Below, in pieces: positions 6,621 to 16,896 of a stretch of 39,984 nucleotides of DNA. The DNA lies in the NCBI GenBank assembly GCA_012523015.1, contig JAAYJI010000181.1:1-39984 (forward strand), written 5' to 3'. The stretch comes from Candidatus Hydrogenedentota bacterium (GTDB lineage Bacteria > Hydrogenedentota > Hydrogenedentia > Hydrogenedentales > CAITNO01). The notes beneath the pieces were generated by a model. That model worked only from the letters and a program-made list of their open reading frames with translations. It had not been told where the DNA came from and made no database searches. The position numbers were made by a program, and so were the translations under genes. The stretch's first letter is position 1. Every line of letters begins with the position of its first letter.

Positions 6621-6689
6621 TATAAAACTTTCACCGCTTAGTCGTAGATCATGAACTACTCATCAATGCAAAGGAGTTATCATCAACCG

Positions 6690-8903
6690 ATGCAGTCAAG
6701 TCAGGAACATATCTTAGAAATAGTGCAACGAGCTGTTCAGCGTTCCAAAGCGCCCGGCGCCGTGGCGTGTGTAGGTCAGGGGAATGAACGTATCTTTCTC
6801 GGTGCCGCAGGTCAACGCGCCCTTGCTCCACAGCATGAAACCGCCACGGTGGACACGCTCTATGATTTGGCGTCCTTGACTAAAGTGGTTGCGACAACAA
6901 CGGCTGTACTCTTATTAAGAAATGCCGGCGTGCTGGATCTTGATCAGTCGGTATCAGCCTTTATTCCACTTGCTCATCTTGATCGTTTCACGCTGCGCCA
7001 TCTCATTACACACGCTTCCGGAATCCGCGCCTGGGATGCTTTTTACACACGTCTCTCAGGACAGCTCCCCTATATCGAAGCCATCGCCGCATGTGCCGCC
7101 GATGCACAACCGGGGGTACAACGTACCTACTCCGATCTCGGTTTCATTTTATTGACTCGGGTGGTTGAGCAAGCGGCTCAAGAGAATTTTGAGACCTTTT
7201 GTAAGACCCATATCTTTGATCCACTGGGGATGAAGGATACCTGCTTCAAACCGACCGACGCGCTCCGCCAACGATGCGCCCCCACTGAGAACAACAAGGC
7301 ACGGGGCGGTATCATTCGTGGCGAAGTGCACGATGATAATGCCTTTGCGTTGGGCGGCGTCTCCGGGCACGCGGGTCTTTTCAGCACAGCGGAAGATCTC
7401 GAAAAATTTTGTCGTGCATTCATGGCCGGTCGTATCTTGCCCATAGAAACACTGGACGAGATCACACGAATCGGTCAACTTCCCTATTATCCTTGGCAAG
7501 GCTTGGGATGGTGGCTGGATCCCTGCGCCTCCGGGCCAAACGGATTCCTGACCGCGCGCACTGCTCTAGGTCATACAGGCTGGACCGGAACAAGTATTTG
7601 GATGGATCGCGCCAACCAAGTATATGCGATTCTTCTGTCCAATACCTGTCATCCCAACCAAAAAAACCGGGATAACGGTGAACTGCGCCGCAGCTTTTAT
7701 ACCCCGCTGTCGGCTCTGTTTTATAAAGATACGACCAATGCACAAAGCGGCCTTGACCGGCTCGTACGCGACAAGTTTGCGCCCTTACATGAAAAACGAT
7801 TCGCCTTATTGTCCAATACGGCTGCTGTCGATCAAACAGGTCGTCCCATCTTGGACGTCTTGGCGTTGGATAAATCACTGACTCTGCGGTACATTTACAG
7901 CCCTGAACACGGCTTTACCGGAAGCGCCGAGGCAGGCGAAAAAGTCTCCTCGAAAGAAGGCGCTGTGCCTATCATTAGTTTATACGGTGACCGCAAAGAA
8001 CCTTCGCCCAGCGAACTGGCCGGCATTGATCTCTTTGTCGTCGATCTGCCTGATATCGGCGCACGCTACTATACCTATATGGCTACCATGAAAAGCTGCA
8101 TGGAGGCATGCGCAAAAGCAAAGGTGCCTGTACTCGTACTGGACCGGCCCAATCCCGTCGGCGGCGCAGTGCTTGAAGGTCCCCTTCCGGCGCAATACAA
8201 ATCTTCTGTTTGCTGCGCACCCATCCCCATCCGCCACGGTATGACCCTCGCTGAGCTCGCGCTCTATTTCAAAGACACCTTTTTTGCCAATACCAATCTG
8301 AAATTAAATTTCAGTCTTGCCGACAATTGGTGGCGTGAATTGGATTTTGACCAATGTAATCTGCCTTGGGTAAATCCTTCCCCGAATATACCCAACAGTG
8401 AAGCGGCACTCATGTATGTGGGCACCGCTCTTTTTGAAGGGCTCAATGTGAATGAAGGGCGGGGCACCGAAACGCCCTTCCTCGTGTGCGGCGCGCCCTG
8501 GATGAATCCCATTGAGATCTTGAAAAGAATCGACGCCGCAGAGCATCCCGGCATCGCACTCACCGGTACGATTTATATGCCCAAGTCCATACCGGGCAAA
8601 GCCACGAATCCCAAGTATCGGGATCAGCTGTGTCAGGGTATCCTCTTTAACATCACCGACAGACAACAAGCCCGGCCCTTCAAAGCAACCCTTGCCGTGA
8701 TTATCGCGCTGCACCAATGTCATCCGGAACTGAAATGGGAAAATTTTTTCGATACCCTCGCCGGCGGTCCGTGGCTGCGCGAACAGATTCTAGCAGGAAG
8801 ATCGGCAACAGCCATTACGGACGAGATTCAAAAGGATCTGGTGAATTTTGATGCGAAACGGCCGAAACTATATGCCCCGTTGAACACACGTCTGGAACTG
8901 TGA
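6690..8903 (+). CDS. fusion: class C beta-lactamase-type serine hydrolase + DUF1343/NamZ exo-N-acetylmuramidase
   Basis: Two cell-wall-related domains are joined in one 737-aa chain. Residues 1-345 are a penicillin-binding-protein/beta-lactamase class C fold: S62-L-T-K65, Y147-S-D in place of YxN, and H295-T-G. Residues about 355-735 match DUF1343 (NamZ), seen in FALLSNTAAVDQ, IYSPEHGFTG, VDLPDIGARYYTYM, LDRPNP, NEGRGTETPF. NamZ enzymes remove terminal N-acetylmuramic acid from peptidoglycan fragments; the serine-hydrolase domain may act on the attached peptide or ester. I chose ATG 6690, about 13 nt after AAAGGAG; in-frame ATGs at 6651 and 6666 lie before or on that site. No signal peptide is visible with any of them, so the location is unclear. 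Its 3' end overlaps the convergent next gene by 36 bp. Confidence 0.88.
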   Translation: MQSSQEHILEIVQRAVQRSKAPGAVACVGQGNERIFLGAAGQRALAPQHETATVDTLYDLASLTKVVATTTAVLLLRNAGVLDLDQSVSAFIPLAHLDRFTLRHLITHASGIRAWDAFYTRLSGQLPYIEAIAACAADAQPGVQRTYSDLGFILLTRVVEQAAQENFETFCKTHIFDPLGMKDTCFKPTDALRQRCAPTENNKARGGIIRGEVHDDNAFALGGVSGHAGLFSTAEDLEKFCRAFMAGRILPIETLDEITRIGQLPYYPWQGLGWWLDPCASGPNGFLTARTALGHTGWTGTSIWMDRANQVYAILLSNTCHPNQKNRDNGELRRSFYTPLSALFYKDTTNAQSGLDRLVRDKFAPLHEKRFALLSNTAAVDQTGRPILDVLALDKSLTLRYIYSPEHGFTGSAEAGEKVSSKEGAVPIISLYGDRKEPSPSELAGIDLFVVDLPDIGARYYTYMATMKSCMEACAKAKVPVLVLDRPNPVGGAVLEGPLPAQYKSSVCCAPIPIRHGMTLAELALYFKDTFFANTNLKLNFSLADNWWRELDFDQCNLPWVNPSPNIPNSEAALMYVGTALFEGLNVNEGRGTETPFLVCGAPWMNPIEILKRIDAAEHPGIALTGTIYMPKSIPGKATNPKYRDQLCQGILFNITDRQQARPFKATLAVIIALHQCHPELKWENFFDTLAGGPWLREQILAGRSATAITDEIQKDLVNFDAKRPKLYAPLNTRLEL

Positions 8904-11653: not shown

Positions 11654-13936
11654 TCACTCTACAGTGAGCGTTGCATAACTGTAACTGTAGTCGCTGCTGA
11701 GGGGCAGCCGTATGAGCGTACGATTGGGTTCCGCAGCCATGGTCTCCGGACGCGCCACAAAATCGGCAAAGGCAGGCAATCCCCAAGATTTCTCATGAAT
11801 GCCCAGTTCCAAGGGCAGCTCCGCTTCTGTTTCCAGACGAAGTGCGACCCCATCCCGAGGCGGAATTTCCAAAGATATATTCCAGTCCCTGTCTGCGCCG
11901 GGCAGTTCATGACCAAGGATCCACGCCCGATATACGGGCGCGCCTGATACGACCCGAATCCACATGCGTTCAGGACCGCGGGGCGATGAAATGATGAAAC
12001 TTACCTGCCGTTTCCCCGCCACTTCCTCATCCGCCGTTATGCGCAGACTAGGCGGATCCGTCAATGGCAAAGGAGCCGGTCCTTTCAAGTAAGCCGTGTT
12101 ATCATTATGTAAATAAGCGCCTGCCTTCTCCGGTGTCGCGTCGTCAGGAATGTAACGCGCCAACCAGGGATCTAACTGACGGGCGGAGCTCAGCCACCAC
12201 GCCTCGTTCTTATCGTAATCCACCCCATAGGCAAGACAGTTCAGGTACGGACTCTTCACGCCGGGAAGACATCCCACATAGGCAGCGCCTAACAACACGA
12301 TGCCGATGACCACCAAGGCAAGGGCTGATTGAAACCACCGTGCTGACCGCAAGAGACACCATTGAGGCAGTGAAAATGAAAAGAGCAGCATCACGCCCGG
12401 AACCAACACAACAGAAAGCATAGAGGTTACGGTGTAGAAAGGCATGACCAATACGGGCGTAAGAAACATAAAAGGCGGCACGGCAAAAAACAAAGAAAAA
12501 CGGATAGAACGGGGCGAACTGGCCTCTCCCTGTCGTGAACCTATCAGCAAGATCAAGAGATAGACCAATCCGAAAGCCAACGGGATCAGCGTGAGGTTCG
12601 CGCCGCCGGGCAACATAACTTGACACAGCATCAAACCAACAAGGAACCATACTAAAGCGCCCGCTAACATTTCCTGCGGCCGCGACCATCGGCGCAGCAA
12701 CGCAGCGACTACAAGAAAGATAGCCGTGCCCACTGCAACAAGTCCCAGAGAAAAGGTATTATTTTGATATAAAGCCATTTCCCGAAAACGCAGAAAGATC
12801 AGGTAGCAAGAGGGTATCGCCACAAGAGAAAAGAAAAATGAAGTGATGGGAAAGATAAGGGTGCCAACCACAACACCGCGCCACGTGAGGCTCTTGGAAA
12901 GAAAGCCGTAGAGAAAGACCGCCAAAAAAACAACGAGGGCAAGAAGTGCCAGCCGCCAGCCCCACGCAATAGGATATACCACCATATGACCGCCCAATGT
13001 ATTGAAATATTGTGCGTCGGGCGCGTAACAATCATTGAGGGGAATCGTTCCAAAATGACGGGCAAGACCAAGGGTATAATTACCGTGGTGTTGTAGACTG
13101 GACAGACTAATATTTTCCGCATTGTCCAACACCGTATGGTAATGTTGGAAGCCATTTACAAAGGCAACATTTAATCCCGCCACGTCATACTTATAGTGTT
13201 CAAAGTCGCTGTTGAAAGGCATCCGCTTATAAAAGTCGTACATAACGGAATTTGCCCGTGCGCCGACACCTGCCTTCGCAAGTTCACGGACGACAAAACC
13301 GTTTTCCGGCGAGGTCTCAAACATGAGGGAGGGACCGCAGCTGCCCCGTGCTTCCAGCCCAAGCATGACGCGCACATCCTGAAACCACGGATGATTGCGG
13401 AAGCCTTTTGCGCCGCCCATATTAAATTCTTCCTGATCGGCAAAGACAAAGATAATATCATTGCGCAGCTTCGGCATGCCGGTGAGGGCCCGTGCCGTTT
13501 CCAATAGGGCGGCAACGGCTGCCCAATCATCAGCGGCGCCCGGGCCCCAAGGCACAGAATCAAAATGGGCGTCCATAGCGAAAGCATTCCCGGATTCACT
13601 GCCCCGTATACGCCCGAGCACGGCGCGGCGGCGCGATACTTGCCGTTCCCCCGTCTTGTCATACTGAAAGAGCAGTTCCGTTTCTACACCAAGATCTTCC
13701 AAAGTTTTTTGAATGTAGGCGCAGGCTTCATCATTACGCAAGGATCCTGCCGGCTGCGGCGCTGTACATACTTTTTCGATATGATGCCATGCACGGATGG
13801 CAGAGAACTGATCCGGCGCTGCCGAGGTGGGAAGAGGGCGGGGCGCAAGGGAATACTGCCACGCGAAAACAGCAGCAGCAGCAAGAATAATCAGAGGAAT
13901 GATGTTGGCAACAGAGGAACGATGAAACAAGGTCAT
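11654..13936 (-). CDS. M28-family zinc peptidase with C-terminal multi-pass membrane domain
   Basis: A 760-aa membrane protein. After an N-terminal transmembrane helix (about 9-28) comes an M28 aminopeptidase domain (about 40-310) that uses two zinc ions. Ligand and catalytic motifs are MDAHFDSVPWGPGAADDW (His and bridging Asp), FADQEEFNMGG (catalytic Glu-Glu), LGLEARG and the late HYHTVLDNAENIS histidine. The remainder has about eight hydrophobic helices (about 335-570) and an extracytoplasmic beta-rich C-terminal domain. The layout resembles ERMP1/Fxna-type M28 proteins. The start at 13936 has AAAGGAG 6 nt upstream. Substrate unknown. The tRNA-His gene follows on the same strand under its own promoter. 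Confidence 0.88.
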   Translation of the reverse strand: MTLFHRSSVANIIPLIILAAAAVFAWQYSLAPRPLPTSAAPDQFSAIRAWHHIEKVCTAPQPAGSLRNDEACAYIQKTLEDLGVETELLFQYDKTGERQVSRRRAVLGRIRGSESGNAFAMDAHFDSVPWGPGAADDWAAVAALLETARALTGMPKLRNDIIFVFADQEEFNMGGAKGFRNHPWFQDVRVMLGLEARGSCGPSLMFETSPENGFVVRELAKAGVGARANSVMYDFYKRMPFNSDFEHYKYDVAGLNVAFVNGFQHYHTVLDNAENISLSSLQHHGNYTLGLARHFGTIPLNDCYAPDAQYFNTLGGHMVVYPIAWGWRLALLALVVFLAVFLYGFLSKSLTWRGVVVGTLIFPITSFFFSLVAIPSCYLIFLRFREMALYQNNTFSLGLVAVGTAIFLVVAALLRRWSRPQEMLAGALVWFLVGLMLCQVMLPGGANLTLIPLAFGLVYLLILLIGSRQGEASSPRSIRFSLFFAVPPFMFLTPVLVMPFYTVTSMLSVVLVPGVMLLFSFSLPQWCLLRSARWFQSALALVVIGIVLLGAAYVGCLPGVKSPYLNCLAYGVDYDKNEAWWLSSARQLDPWLARYIPDDATPEKAGAYLHNDNTAYLKGPAPLPLTDPPSLRITADEEVAGKRQVSFIISSPRGPERMWIRVVSGAPVYRAWILGHELPGADRDWNISLEIPPRDGVALRLETEAELPLELGIHEKSWGLPAFADFVARPETMAAEPNRTLIRLPLSSDYSYSYATLTVE

Positions 13937-14044: not shown

Positions 14045-14081
14045 GATAAAAAAAAGACAGGCAAACAAATCGCCTGTCTTT
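14045..14081 (-). terminator. strong intrinsic terminator after the micro-peptide genes
   Basis: AAAGACAGGC (14053-14062) and GCCTGTCTTT (14072-14081) form a perfect 10-bp stem with a 9-nt loop. On the minus strand the stem runs into eight consecutive T, then ATCAC. It lies about 40 bp after the stop codon of the second micro-peptide, so the peptide transcript should end here, before the M28 gene. Confidence 0.85.
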
Positions 14082-14119
14082 CACTAATCTACAGCATCAC
14101 AACCATAAAGGATTGTTAA

Positions 14120-14233
14120 TTATCCGCCAAACAATACGTCGGACAGAAAATCAAACATACCGTTGAAAAGAAAATCTAAAAAGAAGGTGATTGTCCGAGT
14201 CACCAACAATTGAAACAGTACCGCGAAATCCAT
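14120..14233 (-). CDS. 37-aa hydrophobic peptide (micro-gene 2 of 2)
   Basis: ATG at 14233 is preceded by AAAGGA with a 6-nt gap, one of the better ribosome sites in the window. The product begins MDFAVLFQLLVTR and ends DFLSDVLFGG. It is rich in Phe and Leu with a single Arg and several Asp, so it could span or lie on a membrane. It resembles the neighbouring 36-aa peptide: both have LFxxL near the start, then T, FF and FL at matching spacing, so they are probably paralogues. A hairpin (14250-14272) precedes it and a strong terminator follows. No known family is recognised. Type I toxins, leader-like peptides and small membrane regulators have this general character. Confidence 0.6.
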   Translation of the reverse strand: MDFAVLFQLLVTRTITFFLDFLFNGMFDFLSDVLFGG

Positions 14234-14249
14234 AAAAAGTCCTTTCTTT

Positions 14250-14272
14250 CAAGCCTGTCTTTCATAGGCTTG
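14250..14272 (-). promoter_or_regulatory. hairpin just upstream of the 37-aa peptide gene
   Basis: CAAGCCT and AGGCTTG form a perfect 7-bp stem with a 9-nt loop that ends about 8 nt before the AAAGGA site. Its minus-strand sequence contains TGAAAGACAGGC, the same 12-mer that begins the 5' arm of the terminator at 14045-14081. This leaf could therefore pair with the terminator's 3' arm instead of its own partner. Confidence 0.45.
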
Positions 14273-14353
14273 TGTCGAGAAAATCAATCGTAACAGTCGA
14301 CCTCATTCCAAATACACTTCTGCATACTGCGCGACAGCAGCAATAGCTTCTGA

Positions 14354-14464
14354 CTATTCCGCCGACGGAGGAAAGACCCAGCCCAAAACCAAATCCGTTA
14401 AAAATCCGGTAAAGAACTGGAAAGTTACCCTGAACAACTCTTTGAACAGATTGAACAACAGCAT
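14354..14464 (-). CDS. 36-aa hydrophobic peptide (micro-gene 1 of 2)
   Basis: ATG at 14464 follows AAGGAG with a 7-nt gap. The frame is open further upstream (to 14608), but no site supports a longer product. The peptide begins MLLFNLFKELFR and ends VLGWVFPPSAE. It has Lys, Glu and Arg near the N-terminus, then a long Phe/Leu/Val stretch of about 18 residues that could form one membrane helix. It shares spacing of LFxxL, T, FF and FL with the 37-aa peptide 120 bp downstream. Both lie in an AT-rich island between the M28 peptidase and the EEP membrane protein. Function unknown. Confidence 0.6.
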   Translation of the reverse strand: MLLFNLFKELFRVTFQFFTGFLTDLVLGWVFPPSAE

Positions 14465-14837
14465 AGACTTACTCCTTCTTGTCATTCCAACGTTGAAATA
14501 CCAACCAACAACTATTGAAAGCACCCGCTTAAAATACAACAACAAGTGCGTGCTTGTTACGAAGCCTTCTTTTAAAAACAAGTCATTTATGGATTGTCGG
14601 GGATACAACTGTTTTTATATGCATGGGGCTTCCACAAAATACAGGCTGTTTGGGTCTATGCTATTTTTATTGAAACAGCTCACGCGAAAGCTGGTGCATG
14701 TAAAAAATATTTCCCGCAAAAGTATCCTTAAAAAACACTTTTCTCCCAAATTAGATGATCTTAAATATCAACCTAGAGAATAACATAATTTGTTAGGACG
14801 ATTAAAAATAATTTTTAAACAAAAAAATGCCGGTAAG
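14465..14837. other. AT-rich non-coding stretch upstream of the micro-peptide genes
   Basis: About 370 bp, visibly richer in A and T than the flanking genes. It should hold the promoter of the micro-peptide transcript on the minus strand, but I cannot single out good -35/-10 boxes. A small inverted repeat (ACAAG/CTTGT) lies near 14540-14560. A 113-aa plus-strand frame across it starts with TTG, lacks a ribosome site and is antisense to a micro-peptide; I do not call it. Confidence 0.5.
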
Positions 14838-16865
14838 TCAAGGCGCTTCAGATCCCTTCAGTTGCAGCTGTGCCCAGTGAAGGGGATGATCGCTTCGAGA
14901 CTGGGGAGGCAATACATAATCGTTTTCCAGCACCGTGAACGGAGCACTGAGAAAGATGTGGTCAATCGCGTCATCGATAGCAATGCCGCGCTTCATCCAC
15001 AAAGGATTTGAACCGGAGCGGGCGGCAACCTGCGAAAAAAAATCCATCAATTGCCCATAGAAGGGATCGCGCTCCGTGAAATTAAAATCGCCCATGGCAA
15101 TGGCATATTGATAACGAGAAGCTTCTTTCACAAGGGAGTCCAGATGGGCATTTTTAATTTCCGCATCGCCGGCAGGATGATTGGAAAAGACGGCAATCGG
15201 CTGACCTGACAGTTCTATTTCCGCCGCCGCCGTACCCACCTCATCAGGATTGCTGAAAGAAAAGAGAACACGCGGATTCTCTAAGGGATATCGAGACAGC
15301 AGCGCTGTCCCAAAAGTACCGGAAATGCTGCCGGGCCCGTAAAAGGCGTGATAGCCCAAGGATTGCGAAAAATAGTATACAGCATCTACCAAGGCGCCCG
15401 AAACACGAGCAGTATCACATTCCTGTAAAGCAATAACATCAGCATTAAGGCAGCGCAAGAGTGAGCGTTGCCCCAGGTAATCCCGAACGCCGGCAGTGTT
15501 GGAACCTTGTTGCATATTGTAGGAAACAACGCGGAGTGTGTCCCCTCTTGAAGCTTCCATGACCGGCCTCTGCGTGTGCCACAACGAAGCCAGCCACAAC
15601 AGCAAAAGGATAAGGGACAGGCTCCCCATAAGGCGTGTTCCACGACGAGGAAGCGCCGCCTTATCCGGAGCCTTGACAAAGCCAAAGATCATCAAGAAAA
15701 CACCTAAAATAAAAAAAGGCAGATAGAATTGATTTCTCAGCACCTGTCCGCCCGGAACATAGCCCCACACATTGGTGAGGATCAACAAAATAGAAATGGA
15801 CACCAAGAACAACGCGGCCACGATCAAAGGCGCTACAGCGCAGCGGGGATGTGCGAAAGGACGAACTGAAAAGTAAGCGCCGCTCTTACGCAGATTCAAT
15901 AGGATCACAGGCGACATGAGCAGTGCCATCCACACACCGCTTTTACCGGGTAAAACGCCGCTGCTCAAAACGATGGGCACGGAAAGGGCTGTTTCAGGAA
16001 AGGGCGGCCGACCCGCATAAAGGGCAACCACCAAAAGGGTCGTAAAAATAAAATTGCCTACAGGCAAGCTATAACGGCCGGGGTTCGGGATCCTTTGTCC
16101 TACGAGCATAAACAGGACAATCGGAACAACTACAGCTCCGGAGAAAAGCGTGCCCGTAAAAAAAGGACGGCTGTATCCATGCCAGCCATTTACAGCCAAG
16201 GGCGAAGAAAGAAAAAGGAAGGCAATGCCAAGGGCGGCGAAGAAAGAACACATCGGCACAAATGCTGCGCCGGATCCCATGTCTGCATCTTCCACCGCTT
16301 CTTGTTCTTGCAAAGGCGCGTTCAGATCATGCCACGAAAGGAGCAGCGCCATGCCGGTTAACACGGCGCCCAAGGACAGCGCCATGCCGTCCATAGAAAT
16401 ATCAAGCGACAATCCCCACGAACGCAACACTACAGACAGAAGCACTGCAACGCCCAAGGCCTTTCCAAAATCGGGGGATAAGCGCGCATAAGGGCGGCTC
16501 AGCAAACACGCCAGCAACACCAAAAAAAGAGACACCCCAACACCGCCGAAAAGAATACCGCCCATAGTGCCCAACAAGGGCGCGCAGAAGCGGCACAGGA
16601 GGAACAATAGCACGGCGGCACGAAATAATCGGGGCGTAGACTGCGGCGGAAGCCATAGCAGGGGCAGCGCAACCAAAAAGAGCAATAATCCCAGCAGCTC
16701 CATACCCGGCGCCAAGGCGGTCAAACTAATCCTGTAGATACTTTCCATCCACACGACGAAAAGCTGGAAAAAGAAAAGTAGGATCATGCCCAACCACAGG
16801 CTGCGGACAGGATCATAGCCGGACAATCTTTCTTCATTTTTTTCCGGCAATGTCGTATGCTTCAT
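14838..16865 (-). CDS. multi-pass membrane protein with C-terminal endonuclease/exonuclease/phosphatase (EEP) domain
   Basis: About 675 aa. The first ~420 residues contain roughly a dozen hydrophobic helices. The C-terminal ~240 residues form an EEP domain like DNase I, sphingomyelinase and Mg2+-dependent phosphatases: RVVSYNMQQG, VIALQECD (metal Glu), NHPAGDAE, AMGDFNFT (catalytic Asp/Asn), DDAIDHIFLS and RSDHPLHWAQL (terminal Asp-His). All expected catalytic motifs are present. The EEP domain probably cleaves a phosphodiester in a lipid, sugar or nucleic acid outside the cytoplasm. ATG 16865 is preferred because AAGGA lies 10 nt upstream; an ATG at 16889 is possible. It follows the DUF4091 gene closely, so they may be co-transcribed. 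Confidence 0.82.
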   Translation of the reverse strand: MKHTTLPEKNEERLSGYDPVRSLWLGMILLFFFQLFVVWMESIYRISLTALAPGMELLGLLLFLVALPLLWLPPQSTPRLFRAAVLLFLLCRFCAPLLGTMGGILFGGVGVSLFLVLLACLLSRPYARLSPDFGKALGVAVLLSVVLRSWGLSLDISMDGMALSLGAVLTGMALLLSWHDLNAPLQEQEAVEDADMGSGAAFVPMCSFFAALGIAFLFLSSPLAVNGWHGYSRPFFTGTLFSGAVVVPIVLFMLVGQRIPNPGRYSLPVGNFIFTTLLVVALYAGRPPFPETALSVPIVLSSGVLPGKSGVWMALLMSPVILLNLRKSGAYFSVRPFAHPRCAVAPLIVAALFLVSISILLILTNVWGYVPGGQVLRNQFYLPFFILGVFLMIFGFVKAPDKAALPRRGTRLMGSLSLILLLLWLASLWHTQRPVMEASRGDTLRVVSYNMQQGSNTAGVRDYLGQRSLLRCLNADVIALQECDTARVSGALVDAVYYFSQSLGYHAFYGPGSISGTFGTALLSRYPLENPRVLFSFSNPDEVGTAAAEIELSGQPIAVFSNHPAGDAEIKNAHLDSLVKEASRYQYAIAMGDFNFTERDPFYGQLMDFFSQVAARSGSNPLWMKRGIAIDDAIDHIFLSAPFTVLENDYVLPPQSRSDHPLHWAQLQLKGSEAP

Positions 16866-16896
16866 GAGTGCTCGATCCTTCTTTTCCATGCCAAAG

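What the first reader, a model, noticed from the sequence alone, without database searches (positions are those of the whole stretch)
14120..14464. Tandem hydrophobic micro-peptide genes with strong ribosome sites
A 36-aa and a 37-aa peptide, each with an optimal AAGGAG/AAAGGA site, share the spacing of LFxxL, T, FF and FL and are followed by a strong terminator. They are far below the usual annotation cutoff and lie in an AT-rich island. Candidates include a type I toxin pair, membrane regulators or secreted amphipathic peptides.
Basis: partly seen in the sequence, partly recalled or inferred. Interest (0 to 1): 0.6.

Follow-up and report, generated by a model that had tools for sequence, protein, structure and literature searches.

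The report
Conserved tandem helical membrane micropeptide genes
Two unannotated genes for 36- and 37-residue, very hydrophobic helical peptides are real: they are kept side by side throughout one branch of the uncultured phylum Hydrogenedentota, match no known family, and share an unusual spiral stripe of polar residues which suggests that they pack together in the cell membrane.

Summary
The two micro-genes are real, on the minus strand, in a Hydrogenedentota MAG. Upstream peptide B (14464..14354) and downstream peptide A (14233..14120) recur as a B->A pair in all 17 genomes of the family and in all 4 genomes of a second family. They are under purifying selection (pooled pS 0.60, pN 0.15) and keep strong ribosome sites; a terminator-like hairpin follows A in most units. 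Neighbouring genes are not conserved between genera, so the unit stands alone. Peptides of the same build occur in four other families, in three of them at one conserved site beside pheA. None matches a curated family above cut-off, and no phage or plasmid relative was found. Each window peptide is predicted as one helix; members are mostly anionic. In 66 peptides of 17 groups the polar stripe repeats every ~3.85 residues, not 3.6, which points to right-handed helix packing. Best reading: signal-less micropeptides that co-assemble in the membrane through this stripe (inferred, not shown). Type I toxin membership is not supported (no cationic C-terminus, no antisense signature; one subthreshold Fst match). 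PSM-like surfactants are the strongest rival. Function is untested.

The parts
14354..14464 (-). Gene B (upstream), 36 aa MLLFNLFKELFRVTFQFFTGFLTDLVLGWVFPPSAE; predicted single helix 2-30
   Evidence: ORF; conserved with A in all 17 genomes of the family; pN much lower than pS in relatives; AlphaFold2 helix, mean pLDDT 87.6
14472..14477 (-). Shine-Dalgarno AAGGAG of gene B
   Evidence: sequence; strong SD kept in relatives
14120..14233 (-). Gene A (downstream), 37 aa MDFAVLFQLLVTRTITFFLDFLFNGMFDFLSDVLFGG; predicted single helix 3-35
   Evidence: ORF; conserved; selection; AlphaFold2 helix, mean pLDDT 88.8
14240..14245 (-). Shine-Dalgarno AAAGGA of gene A
   Evidence: sequence; SD kept in relatives
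14234..14353 (-). Spacer of 120 nt between B and A; length 25-125 nt in relatives, no unusual fold; a hairpin at 14272-14250 is not shared
14052..14082 (-). Intrinsic-terminator-like hairpin with T-run after gene A
   Evidence: stable hairpin at the same place in most relatives
14478..14837 (-). AT-rich upstream region, expected to hold the promoter and leader; no sigma-70 consensus found

Best explanation
A stand-alone two-gene operon makes two probably paralogous, signal-less, single-helix membrane micropeptides, B then A, from one short transcript that ends at its own terminator. Shown by sequence and computation: conserved genes, tandem order, strong SDs, purifying selection on the residues, one predicted helix each, and a narrow polar stripe that repeats every ~3.85 residues on an otherwise Phe/Leu/Ile/Val-rich helix. 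Inferred: the helices insert into the membrane and pack side by side along that right-winding stripe into homo- or hetero-oligomers, giving a structural, pore-like or regulatory membrane assembly for which the tandem copies supply the partner chains.
For: B->A pair in 17 of 17 genomes of family f1 and 4 of 4 of f7, same order, both with SD. pS 0.60 against pN 0.15. Terminator-like hairpin after A in most units. Neighbours not conserved between genera. Single helices predicted. The polar stripe peaks at 93.5 degrees (sd 2.1) in 66 peptides and 93.8 (sd 1.1) over 17 groups, including groups without alignable sequence; window proteins used as control scatter with sd 16.8, and ideal 3.6-residue synthetic stripes return 100 degrees. 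Periods above 3.63 imply right-handed packing, about 3.8 being the most extreme known (PMC4786415). B and A profiles cross-detect partner peptides in f7. 13 of 24 B and 15 of 24 A reach a membrane-span hydropathy of 1.6.
Against: Membrane insertion and A:B association are untested. Hydropathy is borderline in many members. Some families appear to have a single peptide at the pheA site, so a two-peptide assembly is not universal. The Fourier peak comes from 30-residue stretches and related sequences are not independent, although 17 groups agree. pTM is only 0.43-0.44, as expected for lone helices.
Confidence: 0.48

Rival explanations
1. Signal-less amphipathic surfactant-like peptides that lie in the plane of a membrane or other hydrophobic surface, or are exported, working like phenol-soluble modulins (membrane remodelling, vesicle release).
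For: Small helical amphipathic peptides without a signal sequence, 1-3 tandem copies with own SD, fast sequence divergence. PSMs are likewise small amphipathic helical peptides, beta type 44 aa (PMC10653798).
Against: The polar stripe is narrow and has a ~3.85-residue period, where an in-plane helix should show about 3.6. No conserved transporter gene nearby. No sequence-family match.
Confidence: 0.22
2. Type I toxins: small hydrophobic peptides kept silent by an antisense RNA, poisoning the producer's membrane when expressed.
For: Size and hydrophobicity fit; tandem copies; one f7 B peptide matches NCBIfam Fst at E 4.9e-5, 23.1 bits, and another at E 0.07.
Against: The Fst match is under the 26-bit cut-off and covers 14 residues; 22 of 24 B peptides and all A peptides have none. 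Type I toxins generally carry cationic residues, usually C-terminal (PMC8309996); these are mostly anionic. No consistent leader structure or SD sequestration, no shared direct repeats, no Rfam match. Present in every genome of a family rather than patchy.
Confidence: 0.13
3. Accessory small subunits or regulators of a larger membrane protein complex encoded elsewhere, as CydX or KdpF are.
For: Single-helix membrane micropeptides of about 30-40 aa often play that part (own knowledge); universal in the family; no partner in the neighbourhood.
Against: Always two or more peptides in the f1/f7 unit, fast divergence, own terminator, and stripes shared between the two peptides suggest that they pair with each other.
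Confidence: 0.13
4. Two-peptide leaderless bacteriocin.
For: Tandem, leaderless, helical, 1-3 peptides.
Against: Leaderless bacteriocins are strongly cationic and much less hydrophobic (PMC6131525); these are anionic and very hydrophobic, with no conserved secretion or immunity genes.
Confidence: 0.02
5. Chance ORFs in an AT-rich intergenic stretch.
For: Short ORFs with SD-like sites occur by chance, and the window pair's mutual similarity alone is not significant.
Against: Conservation across families, pN far below pS, fixed order.
Confidence: 0.01

Closest known systems
Phenol-soluble modulins (alpha and beta type) of staphylococci
   Same: Small, signal-less, helical amphipathic peptides in tandem genes; beta type has similar length (PMC10653798)
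   Different: Different phylum, no sequence-family match, narrower polar stripe of ~3.85-residue period, no conserved neighbours such as an exporter, secretion unknown
Fst/Ldr family type I toxins
   Same: Single hydrophobic helix of 30-40 aa, chromosomal, sometimes repeated; one subthreshold profile match
   Different: No cationic C-terminus, no antisense or leader-structure signature, shared by all genomes of a family, two different peptides on one predicted transcript
Two- and multi-peptide leaderless bacteriocins (e.g. enterocin L50, aureocin A70)
   Same: Tandem leaderless peptide genes, 1-4 peptides
   Different: Those are cationic and less hydrophobic, with dedicated secretion/immunity genes (PMC6131525)
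Right-handed coiled coils (hendecad 11/3, pentadecad 15/4, YadA 19/5)
   Same: Periodicity above 3.63 residues per turn implies right-handed packing; 19/5 = 3.80 is the most extreme known (PMC4786415)
   Different: Here the bulk of the helix surface is hydrophobic and the stripe polar, i.e. a membrane-type, inside-out version; no structure is known

Membership tests
Type I toxin-antitoxin (Fst/Ldr type) | Hydrophobic single-helix peptide under 60 aa | tested here: met
   30-55 aa; helices predicted for A and B; composition
Type I toxin-antitoxin (Fst/Ldr type) | Cationic residues, usually at the C-terminus (PMC8309996) | tested here: not met
   Net charge 0 to -5; K+R about 3% of residues
Type I toxin-antitoxin (Fst/Ldr type) | Curated family model at cut-off (NF033608) | tested here: not met
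   Best member 23.1 bits, cut-off 26, 14 residues
Type I toxin-antitoxin (Fst/Ldr type) | Antisense RNA antitoxin and structured or SD-sequestering leader | tested here: inconclusive
   No leader or spacer structure signal, no shared repeats, no Rfam match; transcription itself not testable
Type I toxin-antitoxin (Fst/Ldr type) | Toxic when expressed without antitoxin | not testable with these tools
   Needs experiment
Phenol-soluble modulins | Small signal-less amphipathic helix in tandem genes | tested here: met
Phenol-soluble modulins | Sequence relation to a curated family | tested here: not met
   No Pfam or NCBIfam match to any PSM model
Phenol-soluble modulins | Secretion and surfactant activity | not testable with these tools
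   Needs experiment
Leaderless bacteriocins | Net cationic charge | tested here: not met
   Net charge 0 to -5; bacteriocins positive
Leaderless bacteriocins | Associated secretion/immunity genes | tested here: not met
   Neighbouring genes differ between genera, so no dedicated cluster

The most novel reading that the evidence does not exclude
A phylum-characteristic class of partnered membrane micropeptides that build a right-handed helical bundle around a polar stripe: an assembly made only of ~37-residue chains encoded as tandem paralogues, defined by a shared ~3.85-residue stripe rather than by alignable sequence. It would be a new kind of minimal membrane complex, such as a channel or a membrane-organising lattice.
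Probability: 0.3. Interest if true: 0.82.

Novelty: new variant of a known kind. Interest (0 to 1): 0.6.

Why it matters
A deep-branching uncultured phylum carries a conserved set of micro-genes, universal in at least one family, that the curated family libraries miss because the genes are short and diverge fast. The peptides keep a physical pattern (a polar stripe of ~3.85 residues per repeat, near the extreme of known right-handed helix packing) where they do not keep alignable sequence. That gives a testable structural prediction and a search criterion that needs no alignment. If the assembly is real, it would be among the smallest membrane complexes, made of peptides of ~37 residues.

Tried and rejected
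Single-sequence and profile searches covered all 68 genomes held for the order/phylum. Viral contigs (A), plasmids (B) and phages (A): nothing. Pfam, NCBIfam, PADLOC (B only) and PHROGs (B only): nothing above cut-offs or beyond weak hits; the Fst match is subthreshold. PDB sequence profiles: only weak PsbI hits for A (best E 0.17, treated as chance between hydrophobic helices), none for B. Rfam: only a subthreshold mir-192 match to the terminator hairpin. RNA-based regulation: spacer and 5'-UTR folds not unusual, SDs not consistently sequestered. Fst-like direct repeats: a 12-nt TGAAAGACAGGC repeat in spacer and terminator occurs in this genome only. Functional linkage by neighbours: none conserved between genera for the pair. 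The sigma-70 scan found no promoter in the island; TATAAT-like boxes upstream in several relatives were seen by eye only. A fold search with a single helix was not run because it would be uninformative. Other phyla could not be searched: the one scan of named genomes was used with a close-relative pattern and returned only Hydrogenedentota.

Full report
WHAT IS THERE. The window is contig C181 of a 3.7-Mb metagenome-assembled genome. The nearest named records carrying the pair are Candidatus Hydrogenedentota MAGs. The finding lies on the minus strand. Gene B (14464..14354, 36 aa) is followed after a 120-nt spacer by gene A (14233..14120, 37 aa) and a 13-pair hairpin with a T-run (14082..14052). 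Each start has a strong Shine-Dalgarno site. The island has GC 0.376 against 0.508 for the window. It lies between an endonuclease/exonuclease/phosphatase-domain protein (14838-16889) and an M28-peptidase-domain protein (11654-13936), both on the same strand.

IS IT MORE THAN CHANCE. Conservation settles it. Single-sequence searches found both peptides in tandem in sister species and other genera. Profiles found B and A in tandem in all 17 genomes of the family (E down to 1e-19; genus g7 scored weakly at first and significantly with the extended profiles). Tandem units were extracted at 25 loci by ORF and SD criteria (family f1, family f7, and one less certain unit in G018); the same criteria gave one unrelated pair in 340 kb. 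Over 15 pairs of units the genes show pooled pS 0.60 and pN 0.15, and the spacer is usually less conserved than the genes. The frames are therefore under purifying selection as peptides.

HOW FAR IT GOES. Family f7 has the same pair in all four genomes, with sequences barely alignable to family f1. Family f2 has a pair. Genus g7 has two or three copies of the pair in some genomes and a second paralogous type ('YLQ' type), which also occurs in family f3. In families f3, f10 and f11, one to three peptide genes of the same build lie at one conserved site, convergent with pheA, with a UvrD/PcrA-like helicase gene next to pheA in several loci read (gene names from sequence motifs, own knowledge). 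Those of f10 and f11 cannot be aligned convincingly with A or B, so their link rests on position, SD, size, charge and the stripe described below. No convincing peptide was seen at the pheA site in f1, f2, f4, f5, f6, f7, f8 or f9, and no significant profile hit appeared in f4 or f5, so absence there is provisional. Between genera the neighbours of the pair differ: it is a stand-alone unit. Within the window's genus, three units share the downstream M28-peptidase gene, and a second location occurs in two genomes.

THE PEPTIDES. They are 30-55 aa, mostly Phe/Leu/Ile/Val/Gly/Ala, with few Lys or Arg; net charge is 0 to -5. AlphaFold2 with the family alignments gives one continuous helix for each window peptide (B 2-30, mean pLDDT 87.6; A 3-35, 88.8). 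Hydropathy is borderline for a membrane span: 13 of 24 B and 15 of 24 A reach a 19-residue mean of 1.6. The B profile picks up A peptides in two f7 genomes (E 7.5e-4 and 0.05) and the A profile picks up one B peptide (E 0.045), so A and B are probably paralogues; this is not proven.

THE STRIPE. The hydrophobicity spectrum of 66 peptides peaks at 93.5 degrees per residue (sd 2.1), a period of ~3.85 residues; the 17 group means are 93.8 (sd 1.1) (a 60-peptide version gave 93.7, sd 1.5). Amphipathic-scoring 30-mers from the window's other proteins scatter with sd 16.8. Synthetic peptides of identical composition on an ideal 100-degree stripe come back at 100.0-100.3, with 1-15% at or below 97, against all of the real ones. 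The polar positions are about 5, 8/9, 12, 16, 20, 24, 28 in B and 4, 8, 12, 16, 20, 24, 28, 31/32 in A. Periods above 3.63 imply right-handed packing; 3.75 is strongly right-handed and ~3.8 is the most extreme known coiled coil (PMC4786415). A narrow polar stripe of this pitch on an otherwise hydrophobic helix is what a membrane-embedded, right-handed helix bundle would need; an in-plane amphipathic helix would be expected at about 3.6. This step is inference from sequence statistics, and related sequences are not independent.

MECHANISM. Best reading (0.48): one short transcript is translated into two signal-less helices that enter the membrane and associate along the polar stripe, as homo- or hetero-oligomers. 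Shown: the genes, their order, selection, helix prediction and the stripe. Inferred: a single transcript, membrane insertion, association and role. Rivals are PSM-like surfactant peptides (0.22), type I toxins (0.13), accessory subunits of another complex (0.13), leaderless bacteriocins (0.02) and chance ORFs (0.01).

AGAINST THE TOXIN READING. The general features of type I toxins include cationic residues, usually C-terminal (PMC8309996); these peptides lack them. Leader folds are not unusual (mean z -0.5) and the SDs are not consistently sequestered. A repeat shared between spacer and terminator occurs only in this genome. Rfam gives nothing. The Fst model matches one f7 peptide below its cut-off and a second weakly. 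Universal presence in a family also differs from patchy toxin modules. A toxic effect cannot be excluded without an experiment.

NOVELTY. No curated family covers these peptides, and no viral, phage or plasmid relative was found. A search of the paper library for small proteins in this phylum found none. The kind, small membrane-active helical peptide, is known; this family, its spread in the phylum and its shared stripe appear to be new. Whether it exists outside Hydrogenedentota could not be searched.

Noticed in passing
L176, L177, L179, L180, L181, L209, L211, L214, L219, L224: In families f3, f10 and f11, one to three amphipathic peptide genes with strong SDs lie at one conserved site, convergent with pheA (a uvrD/pcrA-like helicase gene is next to pheA in several); G043 (L214) has three in tandem.
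   Followed up: yes
L173, L174, L179, L180, L194: A second paralogous type of the same peptides ('YLQ' type, e.g. MNVDVSNFFQGLVETVMVYLQTFLQSLLTGLVENILPF) in genus g7 and family f3, single or in pairs.
   Followed up: partly
L041 and L042 (G002); L118-L120 (G014); L121 and L183 (G009): Some genomes carry two or three copies of the B/A pair at different places: duplication of the whole unit, or strain mixing in an incomplete MAG.
   Followed up: no
L053 9300-9570; L040 and L042: In G018 a tandem peptide pair directly follows a predicted outer-membrane-type protein gene ('AELQNVSIGGQITILGEYY'); a protein with the same N-terminal motif lies convergent to the pair in G001 and G002. Possibly coincidence.
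   Followed up: no
window 14266-14255 and 14084-14073: The 12-nt string TGAAAGACAGGC occurs in the B-A spacer and again in the terminator stem; not seen in relatives.
   Followed up: yes
window 6651-8903: One ORF joins a beta-lactamase-type domain with both NamZ (exo-N-acetylmuramidase) domains.
   Followed up: no
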